Origin: Ianthella basta
Taxonomy: Eukaryota > Porifera > Demospongiae > Verongiida > Ianthellidae
Direction: 5' to 3'
Assembly: GCA_964019415.1 (NCBI GenBank)
Contig: OZ025885.1
Location: forward strand, 2,388,851-2,452,850
Length of the DNA: 64,000 nucleotides
A program made the translations under genes and the position numbers. How positions within the stretch are numbered: position 1 is the first letter of the stretch; each line of letters begins with the position of its first letter. Of the stretch, positions 6,054-62,402 are shown piece by piece. The notes under the pieces were generated by a model. It worked only from the letters and a program-made list of their open reading frames with translations, was not told the origin of the DNA and searched no databases.

Positions 6054-7559
6054 TCAACGCACATAAATGGTCAGTGTCATCTGTGTGTTATGGCTAAGGC
6101 TGGAGATGCCTTGAGGAAGAAAACAGTTATGCCAACGACAGTCGTAAGGACTGGTATACCTTGCTCCAATAGTGTCACAGTCAACATAGGGATTATTAGG
6201 CGTATATTTGTCAAAGCTCAAGCCCAGATCTCTTGCATTATGGCTGCTAGGTGCTGGTATGACACCATTGTTCCAAGTGCAGTGGTCCACAATCTTGGTT
6301 GGGTAGAGTAGCAGTCCCCCCGTCCAGTCCCAGTCAATGTTGTTGTTGATGTGTCCCTTGTAAGCGTACACCGTGCTTTGGTTGTGGTAGGCCACAATCA
6401 TCATTTCTGTTGGAGGTGGTCCGCAGGTCTTGTTGCAGCCCCCCTTGTTGGGTATGTTGCACCAGTCTCTAGAGTAGTCCACACACGGGCGGTAGTGCTT
6501 GCTGAAGTAGAACATGTTCTCAGTGAGGGGCAGGTTGTCCCAGAAGGAGTTCTTCCACACCAGGGTCCACCCCCCCTCTGTCAGTGGTCATGTCACAGTA
6601 CACCTACAGGTGACATGGACCGGTTTGCACCAATACACTTACCAAACCCACAACATGCACACACAGTTGAAGTGGGATGGTCCATTCACCATAGACCTTG
6701 TTATACTGCCTTCTCTCTACCAACTAGCTGTACCAGTGTCTGTTAGCCCCACCTTCACTGCTCTCTTCTGGAGTCCACTGCCACAGCCCTCTTCCAGAGT
6801 GATCCAGTAGAGCCCACTCTGAGGTGGTCTGAACCAGTGTGCAGTCAGTGCCTCCTTGATCTCTTTACAGGAGCATCCTGGGAGTTCCATGGTGGTTCCC
6901 AGTGCTATGGTTAATCTAAGGGAAGGGAGAGAACGGTGTGTGTCTATCTATGTGTCTGTTAGTCAAGTGGTTTGTATGTGATTGTGCTTGTAGTCAGTCT
7001 AGTTACCCAGTCAGCCTCTGTACGTGTGCATGTATGTGTGCACGCGTATGATACTGTGCATGTGTTAGTGTGTGTCACTCATGTATAACTATTGCTGAAG
7101 TCCCTGCCAGGGGAGTGAGTTGACAAAGGTTGTTGAAGCGTTGCTCACGAGTGCATAGCCTTACCTATAAGGCAGCCATTTTCCTCCAGTGCTGCACTTC
7201 CAGATGATGTCTTGTGGGTCTGTGACCACTTGCACGTCTCCATCACTGCATTTATCAATAGGTGGAGTGAGGGCTTGCCTCTGTGGAGGTATACAGAGGA
7301 AGGTTGAAGTGGGAGTATAGTACAATTGGGAAGCTGGGATACTATTATTCTGATGTAGCCTATGATATGTACAGTATGAGATTTGCAGTCCACAGCAGCA
7401 TGGCTGTTGTTGTACAGCAGTGATGCACCCACAGCATACCCATCTGTGGGGTCTCACCTTGGTCCTGTGTGTGTCCACATCAGTTACCAGGTCCTTGGAC
7501 AGTGCTGAGGCACTGCAGACTGCCAAGAGACCAAGGAGGAACAGTTTGCAGACAGACAT
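6054..7559 (-). pseudogene. fibrinogen-related gene 3, frameshifted
   Basis: All four exons are present: 7458-7559, 7165-7280 (116 nt, one codon longer than usual, giving S-T-G-G-K-W), 6753-6915 and 6054-6603. Exon 4 is 550 nt instead of 549. The G run coding for D-G-G-G-W has seven G where intact copies have six (plus-strand C run near 6570-6577), so the frame is lost just before W-T-L-V-W and everything downstream is out of frame. The rest of the FReD is open and well conserved, so the event is recent or is a homopolymer sequencing error. Exon 1 starts MSVCKLFLLGLLAV. Intron 3 is short, as in gene 2, so these two form a subtype. Confidence 0.7.
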
Positions 7560-9049: not shown

Positions 9050-9577
9050 TCAACGTATGTAAATGGCCAGTGTTGTCTGTACTTGGCGTTCATTGCTGGA
9101 GATGCTTTGTGGAATAAAACAGTCTCCCCAACGACAGTCAGCAGGGCTGTTATAATTGTGACATGTTGTGTCAGAGTTGCCATAAGGATTGTCTGGTGAA
9201 ACTTCGTCAAAGCTTAACCCCAGATCTCTCCCACCATCGTTGCTAGGTGCTGGTATGACACCATTGTTCCTAGTGCAGTGGTCCATAATCTTGGTTGGGT
9301 AGAGTAGCAGTCCCCCGTCCAGTCCCAGTCAATGTTGTTGTTGATGTGTCCCTTGTAAGCGTACACCGTGCGTCGGTTGTGGTAGGCCACAATCATCATT
9401 TCTGTTGGAGGTGGGCCGCAGGTCTTGTTGCGGCTCCCCTTGTTGGGTATGTTGCACCAGTCTCCAGAGTAGTCCACACACGGGCGGTAGTGCTTGCTGA
9501 AGTAGAACATGTCCTCAGTGAGGGGCAGGTTGTCCCAGAAGGAGTTCTTCCACACCAGTGCCCACCCCCTCCATCAG
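9050..9577 (-). pseudogene. 5'-truncated FReD exon, copy B0
   Basis: Isolated piece of FReD exon 4. The coding strand begins abruptly at the D-G-G-G codons (near 9577), with no V-Y-C-D-M start, no acceptor and no exons 1-3 behind it; upstream it joins a sequence beginning TAGCCGATTAGATAAATG on the plus strand. There is also a 1-nt loss in the C run near 9313-9317, moving the frame between the W-D-W-T-G and D-H-C segments. The 3' end, ending T-L-A-I-Y-I-R, is intact. The same junction recurs in two later copies, so this truncated form was itself duplicated. Confidence 0.75.
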
Positions 9578-10782
9578 TAGCCGATTAGATAAATGTGCTT
9601 TCCAATTAGTTATTATGCATCACATTCAATTAGATAATTGCACTGTACAATTGAATAGGTCATTGTAAAAATGTTCATAGCTATAATTATACAAACCTGT
9701 TACTGACATAGACCTATGTGATTACAACACCACACTGTACCAGCTAAGTCCTTGTTATTGCTGCTTGTCTGTTCACTAAAGCATTGGAGGGAATTAACTT
9801 CTCATGTTTGTTTGTCTGTTGTGTCATGACAGTCAGCAACAGGTAAATTCCCTGACTGTTGTCCTGTACAAATTTTGCAGGACATTTTTTGTTTTTTTGT
9901 GAGTTAGCACATGTTCTTGAAATAGAACTGCATGCTCGAATGACCAAATTCCCCATCACCTAAAGCACTATACACACTGGAAGTATACTTTGGCAAGTTG
10001 GTTGGGGAAGATTCTTGAACGCTAATTGCATGGTAGACTTTGTCAATGAGCTAACGTAGAATAAATTTCTACTCGATCAAGTGTTTCTATAGTAAGAAAG
10101 ATGATCAATGGTTACTTTAAGAATGCAGACATTCTTATGTCAACTTGTCACCACATATTTCTGTATTCATGTATTCAATAATTCAGCCTGAGTCAAAAGT
10201 TAGTGTGTTGTTGAAGAGCACAATGTACAGCGACAATAGAAGATAGAGAGGTGAGTAGCAGAAGATGTTATCAGTATAATTATTGCCAAGAGCAACAATT
10301 GTGCTATGTCGCATAATGGTGCCTTCCCTCGGGCATTGACTGACCAGGAAAGCACCACACTCGAGTGTACATAGGAATCCTTCTAAACCTGACAGCTGTA
10401 TATGATTGAATATAGGCACGTAATTAGAAAGAAGACACTTCTAGTACCAGTCCACTGGAGTGACAGTAGCAAGGTTAACCATGCAGTGGTCTTGGAGTCC
10501 TATAGGTACATTGTGGACAATATGTGTCTTTGTGAAATCTTCACACATACAGGGACTTCATAAATGAAGTTGAGCATAGGGCCTTGAGCATATCTGCTGG
10601 CAAATTCACACTAGAAGAAGCGCTCAACTTCATACTACAATGTTCACACTACTGCTCCATAGAATTTGTGTATTTGTGCTGCATTGGCTATTGTATGTGT
10701 ATGCACACAGCTGTTTCTACATAAAGTCAGTTACTACTACTGTACTATTCTAGTGCACACTGCTTAGTATACTAGTGATCCT
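9578..10782. other. B-type spacer
   Basis: No exon seen. The segment is repeated with high similarity at 23403-24584 and 34082-35265, each time lying between a truncated B-type FReD fragment on the left and a complete C-type gene on the right. It is therefore a fixed part of the duplicated unit. Confidence 0.6.
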
Positions 10783-13110
10783 TCAGCGCACATAAATGGC
10801 CATTGTCATCTGTGTGTTGACAGTAAGGCTGGAGATGCTTCCTGGAAGACGACAGTTACCCCAACGGCAGTCACTTGGGCTGTTGTATTTTTTATATATT
10901 GTGTCGCTGTTGACATAGAGATTGTCAGGAGTTTCTTTGTCAAAGCTCAGTCCAAGGTCTCTTGCAGCATGGTTGCTAGGTGCTGGTATGACACCATTGT
11001 TGATAGTGCAGTGGTCCACAATCTTGGTTGGGTAGAGTAGCAGTCCCCCCGTCCAGTCCCAGTCAATGTTGTTGTTGATGTGTCCCTTGTAAGCGTACAC
11101 CGTGCGTCGGTTGTGGTAGGCCACAATCATCATTTCTGTTGGAGGTGGTCCGCAGGTCTTGTTGCAGCCCCCCTTGTTGGGTATGTTGCACCAGTCTCCA
11201 GAGTAGTCCACACACGGGCGGTAGTGCTTGCTGAAGTAGAACATGTCCTCAGTGAGGGGCAGGTTGTCCCAGAAGGAGTTCTTCCACACCAGGGTCCACC
11301 CCCCTCCATCAGTGGTCATGTCACAGTACACCTGCAGGGAATGTGCACACATACAGCAGTTTGTACAGTACACTTTGTATATAGCTGTTAACAAACCTAC
11401 ACACATGCACCCAATAATGTTCATTTGCAGTGATTACACCAACGCAGCAACAGGAAATGTGACCAATGGAAAGTTAATATTATTTATGCTGTTTAGCCTC
11501 CACTCTTGTACAGTATATAATTATGTTGAATTGTGTATAGTACACTACCAAATGATGACCTCATACATCAAAGAGACCGCCAGTGCAGTATTCAGATACT
11601 GCACTGCAGTAACCAAGTAAGCGCCTCCAACACTTCCTTATCACCTAAATTGTAGTCAACCAACACCTCTGTAAAGTAAACAAGAGCAGAAAGGTCACGA
11701 GAAGCAATTTAGCCATGAAGTTTCATGTACCAACTTCTGGAGAAGTGGGTAGCTCATGAAAGAGGAGCGCGCACATGTACACGCTTTCCCCAAGGATGCA
11801 TTTACTCCTGGGAAATGAGTAGACACGCAATCGGCGCCAATACACCGCATCCAAACATGTGCAATCGAGCTGAGCCAAAGCAAAGCGTCAAAGCCTTCGT
11901 GACGTCTCCGGGTATTCCTGCGACTCATTTCGTTGGGTACTGCGGCCACAGATCTGCGCACGCACTGAATGTTCCTGGTCTGAGAGTGCGCAGGAACAGA
12001 AGTCGGCAACACCATTGCACAGTACTCGAAAGTACTACTGGGGCGGTGTGGAAAGGATACGAAGCGACTTCAGCCTTGTCCTACGGCTAGTTGTTTCAAC
12101 CACGATCGTCTTTGTCAGCTACTAAACTGACACCAGTAGTCTGTCTAATGTTTAAATGCCTCGAGATTTGACCTCACTGGCTTCCACTGTGTTACTACCC
12201 TTCAGTCATCTGATTTAGCTGAGAAAACAGTCAAACTGAGTTTAGCTTAGTAGTTTTGAGTCATTTCATGAGACCTTTCACTTTAACAAGTTATAATTAT
12301 TTGAAAAAGATAAGTATTTGTTTCAGTAGCCCAGTGTAACATAACCCCATACTGCCTTCTTTAAACCTGTAGCTATATATTGTCTATCCAACTACCTGTA
12401 CCAGTGTCTGCTAGTCCCACCTGCACTACTCTCTTCTGGAGTCCACTGCCACAGCCTTCTTCCAGAGTGATCCAGTAGAGCCCACTCTGAGGTGGTCTGA
12501 ACCAGTGTGCAGTCAGTGCCTCCTTGATCTCTTTACAGGAGTATCCTGGGGTTTCCATGGTGGTTCCCAGTGCTACAGTCAACCTAATTGGATGGGAGGG
12601 GAGAGGAGGGTGTTTGTATGTGTCTCCTTTAGCTACAATGCTACCTATTGTGTGGGTCACCCTGTCTTTCTCTGTAAGCTGTGTAATAGCACAATGAAAG
12701 TGACAATGGTTTGGCTACTTCACCTGTATGGCAGCCAGTTTCCACTGCTACACTTCCAGATGATGTCTTGTGGGTGTGTGACCACTTGCACATCTCCATT
12801 GCTGCATTTACCGGTGGGTGGGGTGAGGGCTTGCCTCTGTGGAGGCAGAGGATGGTTGAGTTTGGAAAATAGTATAGTTTTATATTTTGGTGTATAGATA
12901 TCAGATTTGCCGCTAACACTTAGTCTTGCTTCCAATGCAATTCTATTCATCACAAGTTACGAAACTAGCAGTGATGCATCCATACGATGCCCAGCGGTTG
13001 TGTCTCACCTTGGTCCTGTGTGTGTCCACATCAGTTACCAGGTCCTTGGACAGTGCTGAGGCACTGCAGGCTGCCAAGAGACCAAGGAGGAACAGTTTGC
13101 AGGCAGACAT
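10783..13110 (-). CDS. secreted fibrinogen-related protein, copy C0
   Basis: Intact four-exon gene: 13009-13110, 12724-12836, 12421-12583 and 10783-11331; 308 residues with all phases consistent. It has the family signal peptide, the R-T-K-R junction and the FReD signature. The first Cys of the G-C-S-C pair in exon 3 is Tyr (G-Y-S-C-K), unlike every other copy, so one disulfide may be lost. In the C-terminal part N-S-D-T-I replaces N-C-D-T-I, which removes a second Cys, a trait shared with C1 and C2. Intron 3 is about 1.1 kb because it carries foreign sequence at roughly 11540-12085 absent from the other members. Fold and export are well supported; ligand unknown. Confidence 0.85.
11540..12085. 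mobile_element. unique insert in intron 3 of copy C0
   Basis: Comparison with intron 3 of the other C-type genes (for example 25320-25560 and 36005-36240) shows this block replaces the normal sequence. It is richer in G+C and CpG than the surrounding array. Frames are open on both strands (about 106 and 121 codons) but resemble nothing I know. No clear terminal repeats were found, so the class is unknown. Confidence 0.4.
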
Positions 13111-15872: not shown

Positions 15873-16303
15873 CACTGTACATGGATGTATGCATGCAGCA
15901 TGGTGGTATATATGTACATGGGAACATGTAGCTGGAATGGGCATATGCATGCAATAGGATAGTCTCCTGTGGCAACCCTTGTTATTGCACACTCACATGT
16001 ACAATTGCACTATAATACACAGGCGGAGAAACAGGGGATGGTAGCAAAACCTCAAGCGCGGCAAAATGTTGGCAGATGTAGGGATGGTGAAAACGTATTC
16101 AAAGTCAGCGCATGTTAATGACCTGGGTTTTGCATGGACCAGCCCTCCTTGTTGCATGGACCAGCTGGACCCACTCTTTACATGGACCAGCCATCCTCCT
16201 TGTTTTTACGGTTTTCCGCCAGGTGGTTTTACCTTGCAGGTACACACTGCACCATCCCTACATCTGCCCTAGTTTTTGGAGGAAACATTTTTACACACCA
16301 ATT

Positions 16304-17204
16304 ATGTATACCAGCTGAGGATCTATGCATTAACCTCACCAGTGTGGAGTAGTCTAATTGCATTTTACCTATTTCCTTACCTAACCCAAAGAGAGTATGG
16401 CCTGATCCCCAATGACAAGTAAGAATATCTGTTTGCAGGACCAGCCATTACATTGTCCACGTACTACAATAATAGTAAGATATGTATGATATGTATTAGT
16501 ACACTCCCCTGTCCTACTGTACTGTAACACTGTGCATGTAGAAGGGTGCCTCATTGACAGACAATTTGGTATTACCACTCAATATCCCTATGGCAGATCT
16601 AAAAGTTTCTTCATCTGCATTGAACCAAATGGCAATAGAAGCGGCCTTGGCTGTGACCTCAGCTCCACACACCAAGATTACAGATGAACAAATATGACTT
16701 ACAGTGACACACTGTGCATAAATTATGACAGTCCATTAGTCCAATCCGCTAGTCTAGTCCAGTGAATGCAGACACCCACTTTACTTGCCTATCTGTGTAA
16801 TAATGCTATCATATGTAGGTGCATAGTAATTAAATTACTTCCATGACATCAACATGTGTTGATAGGCAGTTCTTTTTAAGTAGGCCACTGCAGTGGACAA
16901 GCTGGCTAGGCTGTAACATAGTTAATCACTGAAGATATGAATGTAACCGTCCCATTAACCTTCACGATGATGGGACACTGATCAGTCCGACTTGGAGTTT
17001 AAAGAGTGGTGAGCAGTAACTACTGACAAAATTCATGCTTAATCAACCACTCCACCTCATACTATAATGTTTACGCTACTGTTTTATAGTATGTGGGTTT
17101 GTGTGCTGAATTGACTATTGTATGTGTATGTGCACATGTGTTTCTACATAATATCAGTTACCACTACTGTTCTAGTACACACAGCCTTGATTCCTTGTGA
17201 TTCT
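16304..17204. other. array spacer, left end of the 10.7-kb unit
   Basis: No exon seen. This segment begins the large duplicated unit. It is closely repeated at about 26990-27885, 37650-38545 and 41028-41920, each time running into the 3' end of a fibrinogen-related gene. Confidence 0.55.
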
Positions 17205-19358
17205 TCAACGGACGTAAGTGGCCAGAGTCATCTGTGTGTTGCGGCGAAGGCTGGAGATGCTTCGTGGAAGACTGCAGTCATGCCAACGACAGTCATAAGG
17301 ACTGGCATACCTCGCTCCAATTGTGTCGCAGTTGATATAGGGATTGTCAGGTGTAACTTTGTCAAAGCTCAATCCAAGATCTCTTCCTACACTATTGCTA
17401 GGTGCTGGTATGACACCATTGTTTGCTGTGCAGTGGTCCACAATCTTGGTTGGGTAGAGTAGCAGTCCCCCCGTCCAGTCCCAGTCAATGTTGTTGTTGA
17501 TGTGTCCCTTGTAAGCGTACACTGTGCGTCGGTTGTGGTAGGCCACAATCATCATTTCTGTTGGAGGTGGTCCGCAGGTCTTGTTGCAGCCCCCCTTGTT
17601 GGGTATGTTGCACCAGTCTCCAGAGTAGTCCACACACGGGCGGTAGTGCTTGCTGAAGTAGAACATGTCCTCATTGAGGGGCAGGTTGTCCCAGAAGGAG
17701 TTCTTCCACACCAGAGTCCACCCCCCTCCATCAGTGGTCATGTCACAGTACACCTGCAGGGAATGTGCACACATACAGCAGTTTGTACAGTACACTTTGT
17801 AGCTCTTAACAAACCTACACACATGCACACAATAATGTTCACTTGCAGTGATGACACTGGCACAGCAACAGGGAATGTGACCAAAGGTTTGTCTGTTAGG
17901 CCCCCTCTCTTGTATATGTAATGAGTTGTGTATAGTACAATACACTACACATGTGTGATACATTTTGAGCTGCATAGCATAAACTAGTGTAGAGGCTACA
18001 GCACAGCTGTGTCAATGTTTTAAGGGAAAGAGCTTGGACAAAGTTGTTGCTGGTAGTGTTTGTGGCTTATGCAGTAGTGGTCTGGCGGGGGGAGGGGGAA
18101 GTAGTGACTTTAAATTGAACACATAACAGATTGATAGATAGTCAAAGTAAGACGTTTCGACCACAAAAGTCTTCAACAGCTCTAAACTGACATCAGTGGG
18201 CTGTCTAATGTTTAAATGCCTTGAGATTTGACCTCACTGGCTTCCACTGTGTTACTACCCTTCAATCAACTGATTTAGCTGAAAAAACAGCCAAACCGAG
18301 TTTAGCTTAGTAGTTTTGAGTCTTTTAATGAGACCTTTCACTTTAACAAGCTATAATTATTTGAAGATGAGTATTTGTTTCAGAAGCCCAGTGTAACATA
18401 ACCCCTTACTGCCTTCTCTAAACCTGTAGCTATACAGTATATTGCCTATGTAGCTAGCTGTACCAGTGTCTGCCAGTCCCACCTGCACTGCTCTCTTCTG
18501 GAGTCCACTGCCACAGCCCTCTTCCAGAGTGATCCAGTAGAGCCCACTCTGAGGTGGTCTGAACCAGTGTGCAGTCAGTGCCTCTTTGGTATCTTTACAG
18601 GAGCATCCTGGGAGTTCCTGGCTTGTTCCTGTAGCTAGAGTCAACCTGAGAGGAGAGAGGAGAAGAGGGTGTGTGCATGTGTGGTACAGTTGCTTCACTA
18701 TATCTTGTCCCGATTGCCAATACATTTTGTACTCAATCGCTATTACGTGAGTAAAATATTTGGGACAGCACATTCTCACATGTGTAGTAATTCACATGAT
18801 GATCTTATCATGTGTAAATCTACTGAATACTCATGTGATCGATAGCAGAGTGCAAATGTGTGTGTTTGTGTCACTCATGTACTGTGTAACTGTTGCTGAA
18901 GTCATGGCCAGGGGAGTGAGTTGATTAACAAGGTTGTTTAAGCATTTTTTACGTATACATAGCCTCACTTGTATGGCAGCCATTTTCCACTGCTGCACTT
19001 CCAGATGATGTCTTGTGGGTGTGTGACCACTTGCACATCTTGAGCACTGCATTTACCAGTAGGTGGGGTGAGGGCCTGCCTCTGTAGAGGTAGAGCAAGG
19101 TTGAGGTAGGAAGATATTCGTTTGGGAAGCTGGGACACTGTTGGTCTGAGGTAGTCTGTAGTGATATTAGTTTGCTGCCTGAAACTCGCTGTCTACAGCA
19201 GCATGGCTGTTGTTGTACAGCAGTGATGCACTCCATGCCCATCAGTGGGGTCTCACCTTGGTCCTGTGTGTGTCCACATCAGTTACCAGGTCCTTGGACA
19301 GTGCTGAGGCACTGCAGACTGCCAAGAGACCAAGGAGGAGCAGTTTGCAGGCAGACAT
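17205..19358 (-). CDS. secreted fibrinogen-related protein, copy A1
   Basis: Intact: exons 19257-19358, 18969-19081, 18483-18645 and 17205-17753; 308 residues. Exon 2 ends in a C-A-A|GTGAGG junction, giving Lys instead of Arg at the exon 2/3 codon. The start of exon 3 (L-T-L-A-T-G-T-S-Q-E-L-P-G-C-S-C-K-D) differs from the L-T-V-A-L-G-T-T-M-E-T-P form of the other subtypes, so A1 and A2 are a subtype. The partner copy A2 lies about 10.68 kb to the right and is nearly identical except for a cluster of changes inside exon 4 (17313-17357). Signal peptide MSACKLLLLGLLAV. Confidence 0.85.
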
Positions 19359-19431
19359 AGTTAGAGCTCTGTCAACCTGACTGTGAAGAGAAGAGCTTGG
19401 CAGATTGCTTGTGGAAGAGCTGCTGGTGTCC

Positions 19432-19438
19432 TTTTATA
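19432..19438 (-). promoter_or_regulatory. TATA box of copy A1
   Basis: TATAAAA on the minus strand, 74 nt upstream of the ATG at 19358. Confidence 0.6.
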
Positions 19439-22400
19439 CTCTTTGCTAATTCTTGTTTAGTCTGTGCTGAGACTTTGAAGGGGAGTGGTAAGTTTACGTA
19501 CTTAACCTCAGAAATCTACTGTCGTTAATACGTATTTCTACCCAGCAATGAGCAAAGTACCTCGTAATGTATTTCATATTTAATTTCTACAACACACTTT
19601 CATCTGTTTCTTGCTCCTTCTGTAGACGATAATTGTCTTCAACTATGTTGAGGTAATCTTTCATGTGTTAATGGCAGTCACTTGACCCATGTTTACATTG
19701 GAATTGGCTATTTCCTTTGTCCTCCAGTGAACAGTCCATCTTAAATATGATACACAGTATGAACTGTTTTCAGTGCCTTGCTGTGTGTGGTAGAAACCTG
19801 ATGGCATCTTTCAATTTTGTTGTGAGACTTACCAGTGTTTGTGCACACATCCGTTTTCTATGCTATTCGTGTACAAATGAGGGTATTCGTACAATGTACA
19901 GTATACCGTAAGCATTGTCTGTCATTGTGGGATACCTTCAATGTATAAGTGACTCCTCAGATTGTATTAAAGTGTCTGTAGATGTGTTGTGTAGGAGTAC
20001 AATCCCTTATTTGGTCAGATTGTCCAGAGTGCTGTCCAGCACCCTAACACTAAGGGTGAAGGGTTAAAGTTTGTCCTGGTATACTCTGGTTCTAGTTCAA
20101 AATTGGATAGTTGGTGGGCACTGGACAGTGACATAGGAACCGGGTGGTGGGGAGGGGAGGAGGGGGGCTGGGGGGCATAAGCCCCCCCCCCCCCCACGAT
20201 ATTAGAAGGGGGGCATTAGAAGGGCAGCAATGCCCCCCTGAAACTGACATTGTAACATGTAAAAGGCCAGAAAGGGTTGTGCACCTTTCAGCATCAATGC
20301 TTCAATGTTTCTGTGTAACATATTCAATAATCAATTTTTGCTTTTTGTACGTACAATCCAAACTGAATGTAGCAAACTAGTCCTTGAACATCCTTTCATT
20401 CCGTTGCAAGTGGCCATTTTCTCAATCTATTGTGCAACTCTGCATGTGTCATAATAGTCAGTGGGAATTTCATTGTTCTAGAAGTCTTGCTCTAATAACA
20501 AGGATGAAGTGACAAGTCGAATGGGATTAGGACTAGCATAATTGTAGAGTATTGTGAATCCCAACTGGTGCTATTAAAGCTGCATGCAGCATGATATAGT
20601 TTCTCCTGATTGAGTAACACTGTGGTACCGACCAATCTATGGCCTACTGCAGCTGCAAAATATATGAAGATCAGAGGTAGTCAACACATTATACTGTAGA
20701 AACACTGCATTGAATTCCATTAGCTGTGGCCTGCACCATAAACAACCTCAGATTACACCTTAAACTGATCAGTTGGGTCAATACACCAGGTCATTAGGGG
20801 GTCATAGAGTGCTCTAGGAAGAAGCCATACCCCAGGTTGGCACCAGTTGGAGTTCACACTAACCCATATTCCAGCCACAGCCTGCCCTTAACCCCTAGAG
20901 AACCTGAAAATGAAAAGCTGACTGTAGTTATATGCACTGTCCAGGCAATAGTCAAACTGGTCAGTCATTGGATTAGTACGTGCATGTGGTCTGCATGGAT
21001 GAGTCAGGCTAGACCCTCTGTCATAAATCCATTCTTAGCTCGCAACATTTATCTCCACCCCACTGACCCTCCCTATCTCACTTCCACGACCCAACTAACA
21101 CTTCCATCCTTCATCCATAGCACTCATGCTTCCTAACGAACCATACATGCAGTCCATGCAATTATCATCCCCTTCACTTTAGGAGATGCAGTCAACACAT
21201 TACCCAAAGGAATGTGACATGTATTGTAAATTAGCTGTGGTCCAGGCCAACACTAAAATGTGCCACAGCTATATGTCCTTGATCAGCCAAGGGTCAGGTT
21301 TAGGTCAGTGGACATGCAGTTAGGTTACAGAGTGAATCAAGAACAAACCATACTCTGGTTGGTTCCATGCAGTTGGAGTTTACAATAGACCAACCTTGTC
21401 CTACTCCCCCCCCCCTTCATGCACACACACATGCAGTTTAAGTATACACACATGGAATTGCTGACTGTATAGATGTACAATAACAACTGGTGTATTATCA
21501 TATCATCATTGTGTTGGCCTGCATGGTATGATTATATACCCAAATTGTGCCTTTTGGCTCAATGGATCATGATTGGTGTGCATGATTCATGCTCAGCATG
21601 GTTGACAGACTATATTATGCACAGTAGCTTACACACAACAGAATTGGGTAGTTCTTCATATTAGCTTTTGAAATAAGATGCCCACTCAGCACTTCTATAT
21701 GTACACACAATTCTTAACTTATTCACAGAAGTGGTACACAGTAAGATGCTGTGCTGAGTGATTTCATGCCTGCAGTGGATGTGTTAGCTTACTGATCATT
21801 CAGCCATGTGCGGGCATTGTAGCTTAAACATACCAAAGCTTTGCAGATTGGGATCATTATTGTATAACAAATTTACAGTGGTGCCCTAAGCCATGCAGCT
21901 AGAGGAACAGAGGCAGTCAACTCATCAGTCAACAGATTGGCATTGTACATTGCTTCCATTATAGCTGTAGTTTCATTATAGGATTGCACCAAAATAACCT
22001 CAAGCTCTAAACTGCCCCATAAATCAGTTGTGTCAGTACACATTAATTATGAGTCACAGAGTGCAGTGATTGAGACAAACCATGTCACACACTGGCACCA
22101 GTTGGGTTCACACTACCCCCAACCCCTCCCCTCTGGTCCCTCCCTTGATCATGACCCAACCACCTCTCCTTCACCCAGAGTACTGTAACACTGTGCATGT
22201 AGAAGAGCATGCACCTCATTGACAGACTAATTGGTATTACCACTCAATATCCCTGTGGCAGATATGAAAAGTTCTTCATCTGCATTAGACCACATGGCAA
22301 TAGAAACGACCTTGGCTACACACGATTGCAGATAAACAAAATTAATAAGCCTAGCAGTGACACACTGTGCATAAATTATGGCAGTCCAATAGTCTAATCC

Positions 22401-22872
22401 ACTAGTCTAGTCCAGTGAATGCAGACACTCACTTTACTTGCCTATCTGTGTAAACTATTAAAATGCTGTCCAATGTTGGTACATAGTATTTATTATTCCC
22501 ATGCCATCAACATGTGTTGATAGGACAGTTCTTCAAAGTAGGCCACTGCAGTGGACAGGCCGGCTAGGCTTTAACATAGTTAATCGCTGAATATGTGAAT
22601 GTAACCGTCCCTTCAACTTTCAGGATGATGGGACGCGTATCAGTCCGACTTGGAGTTTAAAGATTGGTGAACAGTGACTACTGACAATTTCATGCTAAAC
22701 CAACCACTCCACCTCATATGTACGTAGTACTATGTTCACACTACTGTTTTATGGTGTGTGTGTTTGTGCACTGCATTGACTATTGTATGTGTATGTGCAC
22801 ATGTGTTTCTACATAAACTCAGTTGCCACTACTGTTCTAGTACACACTGCCTTGGTTCCTTGTGATTCTACA
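19439..22872. other. long non-coding spacer of the 10.7-kb unit
   Basis: I see no gene in these 3.4 kb. Landmarks are a G/C homopolymer hairpin at 20149-20240 and a C run near 21406-21415. The whole stretch recurs almost unchanged at 30125-33552. The short frames in it are not conserved in any meaningful way beyond the duplication itself. Confidence 0.55.
20149..20240. repeat. G-run/C-run hairpin
   Basis: A G-rich tract (GGGGAGGGGAGGAGGGGGGC) is followed by GGGGGGCATAAG and 14 C, then two more G6/C5 blocks around a GGGGGGCATTAGAAGGG segment. It can pair with itself and has G-quadruplex potential. The copy at 30835-30925 differs in C-run length, as expected of an unstable tract. Confidence 0.5.
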
Positions 22873-23402
22873 ATGCACATAAATGGCCAATGTCATCTGT
22901 GTGTTGTGGGTAAGGCTGAAGATACTTCGTGGAAGATTGCAGTCATGCCAACGACAGTCGAAGGACTGACATACCGTTTTCCAATGGTGTCACAGTTCCA
23001 TTTGGGATTATCAGGGCTAAGTTTGTCACAACTCAACCCCAAATCTCTTCATCCTGCAGTGTTGCTAGGTGCTGGTATAACACCATTGTTGATATTGCAG
23101 TGGTCCACAATCTTGGTTGGGTAGAGTAGCAGTCCCCCTGTCCAGTCCCAGTCAATGTTGTTGTTGATGTGTCCCTTGTAAGCGTACACCGTGTGTTGGT
23201 TGTGGTAGGCCATAATCATCATTTCTGTTGGAGGTGGTCCGCAGGTCTTGTTGCAGCCTCCCTTGTTGGGTATGTTGCACCAGTTTCCAGAGTAGTCCAC
23301 ACATGGGCGGTAGTGCTTGCTGAAGTAGAACATGTCCTCATTGAGGGGCAGGTTGTCCCAGAAGGAGTTCTTCCACACCAGAGTCCACCACCCCCCTCCA
23401 TC
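22873..23402 (-). pseudogene. 5'-truncated FReD exon, copy B1
   Basis: Same truncation as B0: the coding strand begins at the G-G-G-G-W codons next to the TAGCCGATTAGATAAATG junction, with no exons 1-3. In addition the frame stops at TGA after P-S-N-T-A-G (near 23056), the region corresponding to the C-R-W motif carries a 1-nt deletion relative to intact copies (GTCGAAGG for GTCATAAGG), and the normal stop codon is lost. It is non-functional as a FReD protein. Confidence 0.8.
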
Positions 23403-24584
23403 AATAGCCGATTAGATAAATGTGCATTCCAATTAGTTATTATGCATCACATCCAATTAGATAATTGCACTGTACAATTGAATAGGTCATTGAAAAATGT
23501 TCATAGCTATAATTATACAAACCTGTTGCTGACGTAGACCTATGTGATTACAACACCACACTGTACCAGCTAAGTCTTTGCTATTGCTGCCTGTCTGTTC
23601 ACTAAAGCATTGGAGTGAATTAACTTCTCATGCTTGTCTGGAGTGTCATGATGGTCACCAACAGGTAAATTCCCTAACTGTTGCAACCTGTGCAAATTTT
23701 GCAGAACATCTTTTGCTATTTTCGTAAGTTAGCACATGTTCTTGAAATGATACTGCATGCTTAAATTTCCTTTCATCTAAAGCATTATAAGCACTGGAGG
23801 TATACTTAGACAAGTTGGTTGGGGAAGATTCTTGAGCTCTAATCATGTGGTAGACTTTGTCAATGAGCCAAATGTTAAATGAATCTCTACTCGATCAAGT
23901 GTGTTTCTATAGTAAGAAAGACGATCAATGGTTACTTTAAGAATGCAGACATTCTTATGTCGACTTGTCACCACGTATTTCTGTATTCAAGTATTCAAGA
24001 AGTCAGCCTGAGTCAAAAGTTAGTGTGTTGTTGAAGAGCACAATGTACAGCGACAATAGAAGATAGAGAGGTGAGTAGCAGAAGATGTTATCAGTATATT
24101 GCCAAGAGCAACAATTGTGCTACGTTGCATAATGGTGCCTTCCCATGAGCATGGACTGATCAGGAAAGCACCATACGTACTTGAGTGTACGTAGGAATCA
24201 CTTCTAAACATGACAGCTGTATATGATCGAATATAGACACATAATTAGAAAGAAGACACTTCTAGTACCAGTCCACTGAAGTACCAGTAGCAAGGTGAAC
24301 CATGTAGTGGTCTTGGAGTCCTTTAGGTGCATTGTAGACAATATGTGTCTTTGTGAAATCTTCACACATACAGGGACTTCATAAATGAAGTTGAGCATAT
24401 CTGCTGGCAAATTCACACAAGAGGAAACACTGCACTTCATGCTACGATGTTTACACTACTGCTCCATAAAGTTTGTGTATGTGTGCTGCATTGACTATTG
24501 TATGTGTAGGGACACAGCTGTTTCTACATAAAGTCAGTTACTACTACTATTCTAATACACACTGCTTAGTATACTAGTGGTCTT
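23403..24584. other. B-type spacer, second copy
   Basis: No exon. Same block as 9578-10782 and 34082-35265. Confidence 0.6.
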
Positions 24585-26443
24585 TCAACGCACATAAATG
24601 GCCAGTGTCATCTGTGTGCGATAGGAAAGGCTGGAGATGCTTCGTGGAAGATGACAGTTAGTCCAACGGCAGTCACGTGGGCTGTTGTAATTGTGATATA
24701 TTGTGTCGCTGTTGACATAAGGATTGTCAGGAGATATTTTGTCAAAGCTCAGTCCAAGGTCTCTTACAACATGGTTGCTAGGTGCTGGTATGACACCATT
24801 GTTTGTAGTGCAGTGGTCCACAATCTTGGTTGGGTAGAGTAGCCGTCCCCCGGTCCAGTCCCAGTCAATGTTGTTGCTGATGTGTCCCTTGTAAGCGTAC
24901 ACCGTGCGTCGGTTGTGGTAGGCCACAATCATCATTTCTGTTGGAGGTGGTCCGCAGGTCTTGTTGCAGCCTCCCTTGTTGGGTATGTTGCACCAGTTTC
25001 CAGAGTAGTCCACACACGGGCGGTAGTGCTTGCTGAAGTAGAACATGTCCTCAGTGAGGGGCCGGTTGTCCCAGAAGGAGTTCTTCCACACCAGTGTCCA
25101 CCCCCCACCATCAGTGGTCATGTCACAGTACACCTGTAGGGACATGTGCACACATACAGCAGTTTGTACAGTACACTTTGTAGCTCTTAACAAACCTACA
25201 CACATGCACCCAATAATGTTCACCTGCAGTGATCACACCAGTGCAGCAACAGGGAATGTGACCAATGGAAAGTTTATAATATTTATGCTGTTTGGCCTCC
25301 ACTCTTGTATATAATTATGATGAGTTGTGTATAGTACAATACACTACACATGTGTGATACATTTTGAGCTGCATAGCATAAACTGATGTAGATCTGAGTC
25401 TACAGCACAGCTGTGTCAATGTTTAAGGGGAAGAGCTAAGGCCAGGTTGTTGCTAGTAGTGTTTGTGGCTTACGCAATAGTGGTCTGGTGGGGAAGCAGG
25501 GAGTTATATAGTGATTTTCAAGCGAACACATAGCAGGTTGTTTCGACCACGAAATTCTTTGTCAGCTACTAAACTGACACCCGTAGTCTGTCTAATGTTT
25601 AAATGCCTCAAGATTTGACCTCACTGGCTTCCACTATGTTACTACCCTTCAGTCATCTGATTTAGCTGAGAGAACAGCCAAACTGAGTTTGAACTCTGAC
25701 TGCTTTTCAGCTTAGTAGCTTTTGAGTCATACATCAGTGTCTGCTAGCCCCACCTGCACTGCTCTCTTCTGGAGTCCACTGCCACAGCCCTCTTCCAGAG
25801 TGATCCAGTAGAGCCCACTCTGAGGTGGTCTGAACCAGTGTGCAGTCAGTGCCTCCTTGATCTCTTTACAAGAGCATCCTGGGGTTTCCATGGTGGTTCC
25901 CAGTGCTACGGTCAGCCTGAGTGCAGGGGAGGGAGAGGATGGTGTTTGCATGTGTCTCCTTTAGCTACAATTCTACCAATTGTGTGGGTCACCCTGTCTT
26001 TCTCTGTAAGCTGTGTAATAGCACAATGAAAGTGACAATGGTTTGGCTACTTCACCTGTATGGCAGCCAGTTTCCACTGCTACACTTCCAGATGATGTCT
26101 TGTGGGTGTGTGACCACTTTCACATCTCCATTGCTGCATTCACTGGTGGGTGGGGTGAGGGCTTGCCTCTGTGGAGGCAGAGGATGGTTGTGTTTGGAAA
26201 ATAGTATAGTTTTATTTTTGGTGTATGGATATCAGATTTGCTGCTAACACTTAGTCTTGCTTCCAATGCAATTCTATTCACCGCGAGTTACGAAACTAGC
26301 AGTGATGCATTCACACGATGCTCAACATTATTATCACCCACCTTGGTCCTGTGTGTGTCCACATCAGTTACCAGGTCCTTGGACAGTGCTGAGGCACTGC
26401 AGACTGCCAAGAGACCAAGGAGGAACAGTTTGCAGGCAGACAT
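24585..26443 (-). CDS. secreted fibrinogen-related protein, copy C1
   Basis: Intact: exons 26342-26443, 26056-26168, 25754-25916 and 24585-25133; 308 residues. It has the family signal peptide (MSACKLFLLGLLAV), the R-T-K-R junction, G-C-S-C-K-E-I in exon 3 and the complete FReD exon with N-S-D-T-I in place of N-C-D-T-I. An in-frame ATG ten codons upstream (M-N-S-T-L) exists but is not conserved in the A-type genes, so the MSACK start is preferred. Its duplicate C2 at 35266-37104 has the same FReD except for one Arg/His change, but is broken in exon 2. Confidence 0.85.
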
Positions 26444-26516
26444 AGTTAGAGTTCTTCCCAATGTTGAATTCATAAGACTTACTTTAGAGTTTCTTCCTGG
26501 AAGACCTGTTTGCGGC

Positions 26517-26524
26517 TTTTTATA
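26517..26524 (-). promoter_or_regulatory. TATA box of copy C1
   Basis: TATAAAAA on the minus strand, 74 nt upstream of the ATG at 26443. Confidence 0.6.
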
Positions 26525-27885
26525 CCCACTGCTTGTTGCTGTTGTGTCCCATCCGATTGGGTGCTGTACAGGAAATGTTATTACGTAAGTGTTTGTCTAA
26601 GACTTTGATTAAGGGTCATAGCCAGGAATTTGTAGGAGAGTTCTATGTTCATTTGAGTGCAGTGTACCAAATTCAGAACATAGGTGTATCAGCATGACTT
26701 TGTGTCATTACATCATCAAATGGCTGTATTATTCAATTGGGGAGGTGAATTCATTGAGAAAACTGTACTAAGTGGTTGGCTGAAGATATCAAGTCATTGT
26801 CTAGTGTGACTCTGCAGTAGCTACTTGATATTGTAGAAATTCATTGCCATTTTGATCAGTAATGTCAAGGGTAATTGATGAGCACTACCACAGCATTCAG
26901 TAGCCTGGACTATACATAAGATACTACGTATATCAAATGTTATGAAGTGTAGATTGCCTTGGCTGGTATACAAAATGGTTTTATATTATGTATGCCAGCT
27001 GAGGATCTATGCATGAGCCTCATCAGTGTGGAGAGTCTGATTGCATTTGATCTATCTCCTTACCTAATCCAAGGAGAGTATGGCCTGATCCCCAATGACA
27101 AGTAAGAATATCTGTTTGCAGGACCAGCCATTCATTGTCCCGCGTACTACAATAATAATAAGATATGTATTAGTACACACCCCCATCCTACTGTACTGTA
27201 ACACTGTGCACGTAGAAGAGTGCCTCATTGACAGACAAATTGATATTACCACTCGATATTGCTATGGCAGATATCAAAAGTTCTTCATCTGCATTAAACC
27301 AAATGACAATATATAGAAGCGACCTTGGCTGCCACCTCAGCTCCACACGCCAAGATTACAGATGAACAAATATAACTTACAATGACACACTGTGCATAAA
27401 TTATGGCAGTCCATTATTCCAATCCACTAGTCTAGTCCGGTGAATGCAGACACCCACTTTACTTGCCTATCTGTGTAATAATGCTGTCATATGTAGGTGC
27501 ATAGTAATTAAGTTACTTCCATGACATCAACATGTGTTGATAGGCAGTTCTTTTTAAGTAGGCCACTGCAGTGGACAAGCTGGCTAGGCTGTAACATAGT
27601 TAATCACTGAAGATATGAATGTAACCGTCCCATTAACCTTCACGATGATGGGACACTGATCAGTCCAACTTGGAGTTTAAATAGTGGTGAGCAGTAACTA
27701 CTGACAAAATTCATGCTTAATCGACCACTCCACCTCATACTATAATGTTTATGCTACTGTAACTTTATAATATGTGGGTTTGTGTGCTGAATTGACTATT
27801 GTATATGTATGTATTCATGTGTTTCTACATAATATCAGTTACCACTACTGTTCTAATACACACAGCCTTGATTCCTTGTGATTCT
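26525..27885. other. array spacer across the duplication junction
   Basis: No exon. 26525-26985 is upstream spacer of C1; from about 26990 the sequence restarts the unit that began near 16304, so the boundary between the two large copies lies here. It serves as an empty-site reference for the elements at 13656-14170 and 14230-16303. Confidence 0.55.
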
Positions 27886-30044
27886 TCAACGGACGTAAGT
27901 GGCCAGAGTCATCTGTGTGTTGCGGCGAAGGCTGGAGATGCTTCGTGGAAGACTGCAGTCATGCCAACGACAGTCATAAGGACTGGCATACCTTGCTCCA
28001 ATGGTGTCACAGTTGCCATAGGGAGTGTCAGGAGTGTTTTTGTCAAAGCTCAATCCAAGATCTCTTCCTACACTATTGCTAGGTGCTGGTATGACACCAT
28101 TGTTTGTTGTGCAGTGGTCCACAATCTTGGTTGGGTAGAGTAGCAGTCCTCCTGTCCAGTCCCAGTCAATGTTGTTGTTGATGTGTCCCTTGTAAGCGTA
28201 CACTGTGCGTCGGTTGTGGTAGGCCACAATCATCATTTCTGTTGGAGGTGGTCCGCAGGTCTTGTTGCAGCCTCCCTTGTTGGGTATGTTGCACCAGTCT
28301 CCAGAGTAGTCCACACACGGGCGGTAGTGCTTGCTGAAGTAGAACATGTCCTCATTGAGGGGCAGGTTGTCCCAGAAGGAGTTCTTCCACACCAGTGTCC
28401 ACCCCCCTCCGTCAGTGGTCATGTCACAGTACACCTGCAGGGACATGTGCACACATACAGCAGTTTGTACAGTACACTTTGTAGCTCTTAACAAACCTAC
28501 ACACATGCCCACAATAATGTTCACTTGCAGTGATGACACTAGCACAGCAACAGGGAATGTGACCAAAGGTTTGTCTGTTAGGCCCCCTCTCTTGTATATG
28601 TAATGAGTTGTGTATAGTACAATACACTACACATGTGTGATACATTTTGAGCTGCATAGCATAAGCTAGCATAGAGGCTACAGCACAGCTGTGTCAATGT
28701 TTTAAGGGAAATAACTTGGACAAAGTTGTTGCTGGTAGTGTTTGTGGCTTACGCAGTAGTGGTCTGGCGGGGGGAGGGGGAATTAGTGACTTTAAATTGA
28801 ACACATAACAGATTGATAGATAGTCAAAGTAAGACGTTTCGACCACAAAAGTCTTCAACAGCTCTAAACTGACATCAGTGGGCTGTCTAATGTTTAAATG
28901 CCTTGAGATTTGACCTCACTGGCTTCCACTGTGTTACTACCCTTCAATCATCTGATTTAGCTGAAAAAACAGCCAAACTGAGTTTAGCTTAGTAGTTTTG
29001 AGTCTTTTAATGAGACCTTTCACTTTAACAAGCTATAATTATTTGAAGATGAGTATTTGTTTCAGAAGCCCAGTGTAACATAACCCTTTACTGTCTTCTC
29101 TAAACCTGTAGCTATACAGTATATTGCCTATGTAACTAGCTGTACCAGTGTCTGCTAGCCCCACCTGCACTGCTCTCTTCTGGAGTCCACTGCCACAGCC
29201 CTCTTCCAGAGTGATCCAGTAGAGCCCACTCTGAGGTGGTCTGAACCAGTGTGCAGTCAGTGCCTCTTTGGTATCTTTACAGGAGCATCCTGGGAGTTCC
29301 TGGCTTGTTCCTGTAGCTAGAGTCAACCTGAGAGGAGAGAGGAGAAGAGGGTGTGTGCATGTGTGGTACAGTTGCTTCACTATATCTTGTCCCGATTGCC
29401 AATACATTTTGTACTCGATCGCTATTACGTGAGTAAAATATTTGGGACAGCACATTCTCACATGTGTAGTAATTCACATGATGATCTTATCATGTGTAAA
29501 TCTACTGAATACTCATGTGATAAATAGCAGAGTGTAAATGTGTGTGTTTGTGTCACTCATGTACTGTGTAACTGTTGCTGAAGTCATGGCCAGGGGAGTG
29601 AGTTGATTAACAAGGTTGTTTAAGCATTTTTTACATATACATAGCCTCACTTGTATGGCAGCCATTTTCCACTGCTACACTTCCAGATGATGTCTTGTGG
29701 GTGTGTGACCACTTGCACATCTTGAGCACTGCATTTACCAGTAGGTGGGGTGAGGGCCTGCCTCTGTAGAGGTAGAGCAAGGTTGAGGTAGGAAGATATT
29801 CGTTTGGGAAGCTGGGAAACTGTTGGTCTGAGGTAGTCTGTAGTGATATTAGTTTGCTGCCTGAAACTTGCTGTCTACAGCAGCATGGCTGTTGTTGTAC
29901 AGCAGTGATACACCCACACCATACCCATCAGTGGAGTCTCACCTTGGTCCTGTGTGTGTCCACATCAGTTACCAGGTCCTTGGACAGTGCTGAGGCACTG
30001 CAGACTGCCAAGAGACCAAGGAGGAACATTTTGCAGGCAGACAT
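27886..30044 (-). CDS. secreted fibrinogen-related protein, copy A2
   Basis: Intact: exons 29943-30044, 29651-29763, 29165-29327 and 27886-28434; 308 residues. Near-identical duplicate of A1 including the subtype-specific L-A-T-G-T-S-Q-E-L exon 3 and the Lys at the exon 2/3 codon. Exon 1 has MSACKMFLLGLLAV (Leu to Met). In the FReD C-terminal part it reads F-D-K-N-T-P-D-T-P-Y-G-N-C against F-D-K-V-T-P-D-N-P-Y-I-N-C in A1, within a short stretch holding ten of the differences in that exon region. Confidence 0.85.
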
Positions 30045-30117
30045 AGTTAGAGCTCTTTCAACCTGACTGTGAAGAGAAGAGCTTGGCAGATTGCTTGTGG
30101 AAGAGCTGCTGGTGTCC

Positions 30118-30124
30118 TTTTATA
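30118..30124 (-). promoter_or_regulatory. TATA box of copy A2
   Basis: TATAAAA on the minus strand, 74 nt upstream of the ATG at 30044. Confidence 0.6.
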
Positions 30125-33100: not shown

Positions 33101-33552
33101 GTGGATGCAGACACCCACTTTACTTGCCTATCTGTGTATTAAAATGCTGTCCAATGTTGGTACATAGTATTTATTATTCCCATGCCATCAACATGTGTTG
33201 ATAGGACAGTTCTTCAAAGTAGGCCACTGCAGTGGACAGGCCGGCTAGGCTTTAACATAGTTAATCGCTGAATATGTGAATGTAGCCGTCCCTTCAACTT
33301 TCAGGATGATGGGACGCGTATCAGTCCAACTTGGAGTTTAAAGATTGGTGAACAGTGACTACTGACAATTTCATGCTAAACCAACCACTCCACCTCATAT
33401 GTACGTAGTACTATGTTCACACTACTGTTTTATGGTGTATGTGTTTGTGCACTGCATTGACTATTGTATGTGTATGTGCACATGTGTTTCTACATAAACT
33501 CAGTTGCCACTACTGTTCTAGTACACACTGCCTTGATTCCTTGTGATTCTAC
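30125..33552. other. long non-coding spacer, second copy
   Basis: No gene seen. Near-identical copy of 19439-22872, with a longer C run at 30866-30881 and at 32093-32107. Confidence 0.55.
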
Positions 33553-34081
33553 AACGCACATAAATGGCCAATGTCATCTGTGTGTTGTGGGTAAGGCTGA
33601 AGATACTTCGTGGAAGATTGCAGTCATGCCAACGACAGTCGAAGGACTGACATACCGTTTTCCAATGGTGTCACAGTTCCAGTTGGGATTGTCAGGACTA
33701 AGTTTATCACAACTCAACCCCAAATCTCTACATTCCGCAGTGTTGCTAGGTGCTGGTATAGCACCATTGTTGATATTGCAGTGGTCCACAATCTTGGTTG
33801 GGTAGAGTAGCAGTCCCCCTGTCCAGTCCCAGTCAATATTGTTGTTGATGTGTCCCTTGTAAGCGTACACTGTGCGTCGGTTGTGGTAGGCCACAATCAT
33901 CATTTCTGTTGGAGGTGGGCCGCAGGTCTTGTTGCGGCTCCCCTTGTTGGGTATGTTGCACCAGTCTCCAGAGTAGTCCACACACGGGCGGTAGTGCTTG
34001 CTGAAGTAGAACATGTCCTCAGTGAGTGGCAGGTTGTCCCAGAAGGAGTTCTTCCACACCAGAGTCCACCCCCCTCCATCA
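33553..34081 (-). pseudogene. 5'-truncated FReD exon, copy B2
   Basis: Duplicate of B1 with the same 5' truncation and junction. Here the frame continues past the place where B1 stops (P-S-N-T-A-E-C-R-D-L-G-L), but the shared 1-nt deletion in the C-R-W region still shifts the frame, giving an unrelated tail. It has N-K-G-S-R-N-K-T-C like B0 and gene 2, whereas B1 has N-K-G-G-C, suggesting exchange of short tracts between copies after duplication. Confidence 0.8.
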
Positions 34082-37104: not shown

Positions 37105-37177
37105 AGTTAGAGTTCTTCCCAATGTTGAATTCATAAGACTGACTTGAGAGTTTCCTCCTTGAAGACCTGTGTGCGGC

Positions 37178-37185
37178 TTTTTATA
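37178..37185 (-). promoter_or_regulatory. TATA box of copy C2
   Basis: TATAAAAA on the minus strand, 74 nt upstream of the ATG at 37104. Confidence 0.55.
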
Positions 37186-51358: not shown

Positions 51359-51445
51359 GGCTTTGAAAGTCTTTGCTCAAAAGTTGCTCTTGAAGTTCGT
51401 TTCTCGCTCTTGGTTGGTTTGATGGCCCTTGAATCCGCCATACTG

Positions 51446-62332: not shown

Positions 62333-62402
<70 letters not shown>

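What the first reader, a model, noticed from the sequence alone, without database searches (positions are those of the whole stretch)
17205..17470. Short hypervariable patches inside near-identical FReD exons
Seen: across eleven copies the flanks R-D-L-G-L-S-F-D-K and P-D-N are nearly fixed, but the residue after F-D-K is H, Y, V, E, V, I, N, L, I, Q or T. Similar scatter occurs just after D-H-C, before R-D-L-G, around N-P-x-x-N, between C-R-W and the next Cys, after that Cys, and after I-S-S. Invariant scaffold with a handful of variable points is what a diversifying binding surface looks like. Mechanism (positive selection, gene conversion or directed mutation) is open.
Basis: partly seen in the sequence, partly recalled or inferred. 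Interest (0 to 1): 0.85.

Follow-up and report, generated by a model that had tools for sequence, protein, structure and literature searches.

The report
Hypervariable patches in tandem lectin genes
An animal genome carries clusters of near-identical secreted lectin-like genes in which a dozen codons keep changing under selection while the rest of the protein is held uniform, largely by copying between genes, as expected of a recognition repertoire.

Summary
The window holds a tandem array of four-exon, 308-aa, apparently secreted proteins on the minus strand; seven of nine four-exon copies have intact frames. In exon 4 the first 106 codons are near fixed; the last 76 carry point-like variable patches. 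The 209-Mb genome holds 45 aligned full-length exon-4 copies in several clusters, and four clusters vary at the same points: codons 110, 133, 140, 146/147, 153, 158, 161, 170-172. Site models support positive selection in all four. A tree-free test on columns chosen from the other clusters agrees when pooled (pN 0.293, pS 0.137, 16 disjoint pairs), though singly it is clear in only two.

New: strictly synonymous divergence also steps up inside the exon, 2.1- to 4.0-fold, and exchange between copies since a recent segmental duplication is detectable. So the scaffold is uniform largely through gene conversion. Directed hypermutation is not supported.

The domain looks intelectin-like (X-type lectin) rather than a classic FReD, without proof. 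Ligand and expression are unknown. Whether the variable sites form one face could not be decided.

The parts
17436..17753 (-). Exon 4, codons 1-106: homogenised scaffold half (VYCDMTTDGGGWTLVWK...KIVD)
17205..17435 (-). Exon 4, codons 107-182 plus stop: variable half
17421..17426 (-). Hypervariable codons 110-111 (after DHC-T)
17355..17357 (-). Hypervariable codon 133 (after FDK)
17334..17336 (-). Hypervariable codon 140 (NPxxN patch)
17313..17318 (-). Hypervariable codons 146-147
17295..17297 (-). Hypervariable codon 153 (SP-x-DC)
17280..17282 (-). Hypervariable codon 158 (CRW-x-xC)
17271..17273 (-). Hypervariable codon 161 (after that Cys)
17238..17246 (-). Hypervariable codons 170-172 (after ISS-L)
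18483..18645 (-). Exon 3 of the same gene (start of the lectin domain)
18969..19081 (-). Exon 2 of the same gene
19257..19358 (-). Exon 1 of the same gene (signal-like peptide)
41921..43756 (-). Reference gene, 4 exons (43756-43655, 43480-43368, 43226-43064, 42469-41921), 308 aa, intact frame
38546..40485 (-). Four-exon paralogue, intact frame
35266..37104 (-). Four-exon paralogue; exon 2 is 19 bases shorter and breaks the frame as modelled; exon 4 open
27886..30044 (-). Four-exon paralogue, intact frame
24585..26443 (-). Four-exon paralogue, intact frame
10783..13110 (-). Four-exon paralogue, intact frame
6054..7559 (-). Four-exon paralogue with a one-base insertion in exon 4
2177..3663 (-). 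Four-exon paralogue, intact frame, exon 4 one codon longer
33552..34081 (-). Orphan 5'-truncated exon-4 pseudogene
22871..23403 (-). Orphan 5'-truncated exon-4 pseudogene
9050..9578 (-). Orphan 5'-truncated exon-4 pseudogene
719..1310 (-). Gene remnant: exon 1 (1310-1209) and the first 140 bases of exon 4 (857-719)
16301..39342 (.). Segmental duplication: 16301-28664 against 26985-39342 (96.0% by BLASTN; 2.4% mismatches over 16301-27000)

Best explanation
A germline-encoded repertoire of secreted intelectin-like lectins. Tandem duplication makes copies. Interlocus gene conversion keeps the first part of exon 4 nearly identical across copies (shown at synonymous sites; low total divergence suggests the same for exon 1 and part of exon 3, where synonymous sites were not separated). 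Conversion also moves short blocks within the variable half. Positive selection keeps changing about a dozen codons in the C-terminal 76 residues, and conversions that would erase those differences are selected against or blocked by mismatch, so a step of divergence stands inside one exon. Inferred, not shown: the variable codons lie at or around the ligand site and change which glycans (of microbes, symbionts or conspecifics) each copy binds.
For: Same variable points in 4 clusters, rho 0.37-0.62 in the C-half. M2a over M1a: LRT 14.4, 29.0, 23.7, 43.6; 0 of 60 simulations reach it in each cluster. Tree-free: columns chosen from the other three clusters give pN(HV)/pS 1.37, 1.65, 1.08, 2.78 for C18, C8A, C21, C22 (95% CI 0.98-1.85, 1.20-2.20, 0.81-1.41, 1.72-4.73); 16 disjoint closest pairs pooled pN 0.293, pS 0.137, Fisher p 3e-11, other C-half columns pN 0.046. 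Synonymous step N-half to C-half: 0.054 to 0.216 (C18), 0.068 to 0.146 (C8A), 0.064 to 0.239 (C21), 0.029 to 0.097 (C22), column-permutation p 5e-5 to 2.6e-3. C8A against C23, different contigs: 0.057 to 0.310. The 3' flanks in all four clusters, and the introns clearly in C18 and C8, are more diverged than the N-half. Since the segmental duplication, 16 of 28 N-half differences in three pairs have both alleles in other copies, against 5% expected (p 3e-14). GC3 is higher in the N-half in 45 of 45 copies. VIA-align and profile search favour intelectins.
Against: Recombination can inflate site-model tests; for C18 and C21 the tree-free interval includes 1. M8/M8a did not converge. For C18 the best M2a optimum rests on about one site (omega2 47.7 on 1% of sites); the other optimum had omega2 2.47 on 15% (LRT 9.5). 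The N-half of C8A also gives a significant M2a (p 5e-4), so selection is not confined to the C-half there. Between clusters the N-half is still 1.2-1.8 times less diverged at synonymous sites (3 of 6 comparisons p<0.05), so some constraint adds to conversion. Upstream sequence is not always much more diverged than the N-half: in C21 the windows are 0.057-0.265 (N-half 0.024-0.051), and in C22 six of eight are 0.013-0.049 (N-half 0.004-0.033), with only the two next to the exon at 0.14-0.16. Exon 2 of C18 is not homogenised (windows 0.20 and 0.07). GC3 is also higher in the N-half of five copies outside the main clusters. PHI was significant in 2 of 8 tests. The structure is weak where many variable sites lie. 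No expression, ligand or polymorphism data.
Confidence: 0.75

Rival explanations
1. No positive selection: the C-half is simply older or relaxed while the N-half is constrained, and the residues drift.
For: Overall C-half pN/pS is below 1 (0.48, 0.67, 0.57, 0.83 in C18, C8A, C21, C22), and C-half synonymous divergence is high.
Against: Replacement changes concentrate in columns predicted from other clusters, with pN above pS in recent, unsaturated pairs; site tests in 4 of 4 clusters.
Confidence: 0.12
2. Directed or local hypermutation (DGR-like, AID-like) targets the variable codons.
For: Codons such as 133 vary in all three positions; w17 and w28 differ by 10 bases within codons 133-147 while codons 148-182 are identical.
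Against: The recent pair w25/w35 differs at 1 base in the C-half, no more than its flanks. Synonymous change at variable codons is not raised: 0.181 against 0.214 (adjacent) and 0.196 (other). 15 of 21 C-half differences in duplicated pairs use alleles already present in other copies, against 28% expected, which points to conversion.
Confidence: 0.04
3. Assembly artefact: haplotypes or chimeric reads strung together as tandem copies.
For: The 96.0% segmental duplication could be uncollapsed alleles; pseudogene fragments are interspersed.
Against: Copies have different introns, flanks and spacing; the same pattern is seen in clusters on other contigs.
Confidence: 0.04
4. The variable patches serve adhesion, biomineral, gamete or self recognition rather than binding of microbes.
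For: Nothing in the sequence names the ligand; a related domain ends large bacterial ORFs.
Against: None decisive; mammalian intelectins bind microbial glycans (PMC12800186, abstract and passages read).
Confidence: 0.3

Closest known systems
Placozoan intelectin clusters (Trichoplax sp. H2; PMC6321704, abstract and passages read)
   Same: Mostly secreted proteins of about 250 aa with a single short N-terminal FReD match, in 5 clusters of 2-9 genes, up to 31 genes, classed as intelectins
   Different: The passages read report no variable sites, selection or conversion; their sequences were not compared here
Vertebrate intelectins (X-type lectins)
Clustered protocadherins (fugu; PMC1852091, abstract and passages read)
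   Same: Within one exon a homogenised part and a diverse part with a discrete boundary, argued from synonymous sites; higher GC3 in the converted part
   Different: Adhesion proteins with 3' homogenisation over cadherin repeats; here the 3' end is diverse and variation is point-like
Peak-of-divergence model for duplicates under conversion plus selection (review PMC3924837, passages read)
   Same: Predicts high divergence only around selected sites, as in the human opsin genes
   Different: Opsins are a two-gene case; here the pattern recurs in four clusters
FREPs and other diversified invertebrate immune families (PMC12074976, PMC1988830, PMC7588048: search listings only)
   Same: Large families of recognition proteins
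   Different: FREPs combine fibrinogen and IgSF domains (listing of PMC7588048); the gene tested here has no IgSF match

Membership tests
Fibrinogen-related domain (Pfam PF00147) | Whole-domain match over the gathering score | tested here: not met
   Exon 4 of the reference copy scores 14.7 bits against the cut-off 22, over residues 1-17 only; with read-in intron residues the same copy reaches 22.1, again on 21 residues. The profile-profile match to eight canonical FReDs of the same genome covers query residues 1-53
Fibrinogen-related domain (Pfam PF00147) | N-terminal CDMxTDGGGW motif | tested here: met
Intelectin / X-type lectin | Sequence profile closer to intelectins than to other FReD proteins | tested here: met
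   Profile of bacterial, viral and window rows: XEEL 1.5e-11, lamprey serum lectin 6.4e-11 and intelectin-1 2.7e-9 lead the list; a fibrinogen beta chain (1lwu) follows closely at 3.1e-9; the intelectin matches cover only the first 50-65 positions. With animal rows alone no intelectin leads
Intelectin / X-type lectin | Intelectin fold over the whole domain | tested here: inconclusive
Intelectin / X-type lectin | Calcium site and aromatic box (W288, Y297 in intelectin-1) | tested here: inconclusive
   No residue-level alignment; only position: variable codons 158, 161 and 170-172 lie 24, 21 and 12-10 residues from the C-terminus, W288 and Y297 lie 25 and 16 from residue 313
Intelectin / X-type lectin | Calcium-dependent glycan binding | not testable with these tools
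   needs protein
FREP (IgSF + FBG) | IgSF domain upstream of the FBG domain | tested here: not met
   The frames holding exons 1-3 of the reference gene give no Pfam match at E 1; other copies not scanned
Diversity-generating retroelement target | Local excess of mutation at variable codons | tested here: not met
   no template repeat or reverse transcriptase was sought

The most novel reading that the evidence does not exclude
The array works like a conversion-driven receptor repertoire: intact intelectin-like genes take short variable blocks from neighbours and from orphan exon-4 pseudogenes that lack exons 1-3. Individuals, perhaps even somatic cells, then carry different sets of recognition sites, in the manner of bird immunoglobulin V-pseudogene conversion (recalled) but built on a lectin and in an animal presumably without antibodies.
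Probability: 0.12. Interest if true: 0.85.

Novelty: new variant of a known kind. Interest (0 to 1): 0.62.

Why it matters
It offers a compact natural experiment: four arrays in one genome repeat the same division into a copied scaffold and selected points. That points to likely specificity positions of an intelectin-like lectin without any ligand knowledge and makes them directly testable. It also suggests a way for an invertebrate to keep a broad recognition repertoire: conversion maintains the fold while selection protects a few codons from it. The full-length bacterial relatives (40-42% identity) give uninterrupted coding sequences on which to study the domain.

Tried and rejected
Structure of the window protein: the alignment of 10 window rows gave pLDDT 34.6 and was not used. 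A second model, of a bacterial relative with 14 rows, gave pLDDT 63.4, pTM 0.65; of 12 variable codons 11 map to it, all outside strands and helices, but only 10 of 74 mapped C-half residues are in strands or helices at all, so this says little. No 'one face' claim is made.

M8/M8a fits converged poorly (M8a below M1a in 4 of 4 clusters) and are not used. PHI was significant in 2 of 8 tests (C8A N-half p 0.008, C21 C-half p 0.001); the GENECONV-like test on the whole exon had at least one pair with global p at or below 0.008 in 4 of 4 clusters. The change point of synonymous divergence is broad: C18 alignment columns 91-136, C8A 75-138, C21 98-168, C22 unresolved (LR 2.9). 'Same place' holds only at this resolution, and the half boundary used in the tests was fixed by eye at KIVD.

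Rows dropped or kept: the frame-shifted C18 copy at 6603 was left out of all selection tests; the C18 copy at 35814, whose exon 2 breaks the frame, was kept because its exon 4 is open; the copy upstream of the window was kept with its other exons unchecked for frame. The four C8B, two C14/C39, two C4 and one C10 copies were left out of the four-cluster tests. C21_64, with one in-frame TGA, was kept with that codon ignored. C8A includes the two C23 copies, not (table). The variability threshold (mean entropy 1.2) was set once. The 12 variable codons used were chosen from all clusters, so those two uses are not held out. The chance values of 5% and 28% treat all base changes as equal. A fourth pair in the segmental duplication, w28/w39, lies at its diverged end (windows up to 19%) and was not counted.

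Solved relatives of the part after the GGGW motif: none (best E 0.38, zinc fingers). Phage records: no match to the bacterial domain. Further viral scans added the same contig again and short matches. Organism: not identified; the mitochondrial search did not complete.

Literature: eight searches listed no title or abstract that reports variable points, selection or conversion in intelectin-like genes of a non-bilaterian animal; the library holds only open-licence PMC papers, and most listed papers were not opened.

Full report
What is there. The window is G000:C18:2388851-2452850 of an unnamed 209-Mb genome in 96 contigs. On the minus strand from about 43.8 kb down to the left edge lies a tandem array. 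The reference gene has four exons (43756-43655, 43480-43368, 43226-43064, 42469-41921) with GT-AG junctions and encodes 308 aa beginning with a hydrophobic, signal-like stretch. Nine copies in the window have all four exons. Seven have an intact spliced frame. One (6603-6054) has a one-base insertion in exon 4, and one (35814-35266) an exon 2 that is 19 bases shorter, with an open exon 4. Three more are orphan exon-4 pseudogenes that start at base 19-21 of the exon and lack exons 1-3; one is a remnant; a further copy lies just upstream of the window. The finding's coordinates cover mainly the 3' half of exon 4 of the copy at 17753-17205.

The family in the genome. A search with exon 4 gives 59 matches. 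Forty-five full-length exon-4 sequences were aligned: 10 on C18, 13 on C8, 9 on C21, 6 on C22, 2 on C23, 2 on C4 and one each on C14, C39 and C10. In the clusters C18, C8A (with C23), C21 and C22 the first 106 codons or so are much more alike than the rest. Column by column, variability in the C-half is correlated between every pair of these four clusters (6 of 6; rho 0.37-0.62). The shared points are codons 110, 133, 140, 146/147, 153, 158, 161 and 170-172.

Selection. In the earlier fit codons 110 and 140 reached posterior above 0.8 in four of four clusters and codon 133 in three. The N-half was not significant in C18, C21 and C22 but was in C8A (p 5e-4). Because conversion can mislead tree-based tests, variable columns were also defined from three clusters and tested in the fourth: pN(HV)/pS was 1.37, 1.65, 1.08 and 2.78, with intervals excluding 1 in two of four (C8A, C22). 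In 16 disjoint closest pairs, pooled, pN at these columns was 0.293 against pS 0.137 (Fisher p 3e-11) and pN 0.046 elsewhere in the C-half.

The step in neutral divergence. In C18 total divergence is 2-4% in the first 300 bases of exon 4 and 14-27% in the rest, with the upstream intron at 6-27% where alignable and the 3' flank nearly unalignable. The step inside the exon and the diverged 3' flank recur in C8, C21 and C22; the upstream intron is strongly diverged in C8, moderately in C21 (0.057-0.265), and in C22 only in the two windows next to the exon. Counting only codons that keep their amino acid, differences rise from N-half to C-half 4.0-, 2.1-, 3.7- and 3.4-fold in C18, C8A, C21 and C22 (column-permutation p 5e-5, 1.7e-3, 5e-5, 2.6e-3). 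In the small, older C8B group the ratio is 1.5 (p 0.017). Between clusters it is 1.2-1.8 (six comparisons, three with p below 0.05), and at four-fold sites both halves are far diverged (0.42-0.77 and 0.50-0.75; C8A against C23 apart). The C23 genes have N-halves as close to C8A as C8A genes are to each other (0.057 against 0.068) but far older C-halves (0.310 against 0.146). Low synonymous divergence of the scaffold within clusters is therefore mostly concerted evolution, with some added constraint.

Conversion seen directly. A segmental duplication (16301-28664 against 26985-39342) is 96.0% identical; over 16301-27000 mismatches are 2.4%. In three exon-4 pairs inside it, 16 of 28 N-half differences have both alleles present in other copies, where a random mutation would recreate a known allele 5% of the time (p 3e-14); in the C-half 15 of 21 against 28% (p 4e-5). 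A fourth pair at the diverged end was not counted. In the w17/w28 pair, codons 133-147 hold 10 base differences while codons 111-132 and 148-182 are identical, as a short conversion tract would leave; no donor was identified. GC3 is higher in the N-half in 45 of 45 copies, as reported for converted protocadherin regions (PMC1852091), but five copies outside the main clusters show it too. PHI and GENECONV-like tests give mixed support.

Directed mutation. The youngest pair in the duplication (w25/w35) has one difference in the C-half, no more than its flanks, and synonymous change at variable codons (0.181) is not above that at adjacent (0.214) or other (0.196) codons. A local mutator is not needed.

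How it may work. Intelectins bind glycans through calcium, with aromatic residues around the sugar, and mouse intelectin-2 differs from intelectin-1 at one ligand-site residue, W288A, with a different sugar preference (PMC12800186, passages read). In this family several selected codons lie at a similar distance from the C-terminus as W288 and Y297, which is a count of positions and not an alignment. That selected codons tune the ligand is an inference. The evolutionary pattern is what theory predicts for duplicates under conversion with selection for difference at a few sites (review PMC3924837, passages).

Limits. One assembly, no transcripts, no individuals, no sister species, organism unidentified, no reliable structure of the variable loops, own implementation of the site models.

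Noticed in passing
L058:1902-2519, L059:1902-2519, L060:1905-2525: Full-length relatives of the animal domain (40-42% identity) in Deltaproteobacteria/Myxococcales MAG contigs, at the C-terminus of large ORFs, two of them with MopE-like repeats; transfer between animals and bacteria or an old shared domain is open.
   Followed up: partly
L062:1140-4040: Two neighbouring ORFs in a viral contig each end in a related GGGW-type domain; this part matches PHROG 1325 and others of unknown function, and the N-terminal part of the second ORF weakly matches PHROG 5621.
   Followed up: partly
window 9050-9578, 22871-23403, 33552-34081: Three orphan exon-4 pseudogenes share nearly the same 5' truncation point and similar upstream sequence, so they look like one duplicated pseudogene lineage; possible donors for conversion.
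   Followed up: partly
window 24585-25133 and 35266-35814: Three of the six replacement differences between this young pair are CG-to-TG or CG-to-CA changes at arginine codons (24, 76, 153), as methylated CpG decay would give.
   Followed up: no
window 50795-51376 (-): 194-codon open frame that looks like an ARF-type small GTPase (recalled motif, no family search run).
   Followed up: no
window 57625-63230 (+): Open frames that look like pieces of an RRM/RS-rich RNA-binding protein (recalled motif, no family search run).
   Followed up: no
G000, whole genome: The PF00147 search gives 141 matches, many in clusters (C2, C9, C16, C19 and others), so canonical FReDs are also greatly expanded in this genome.
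   Followed up: no
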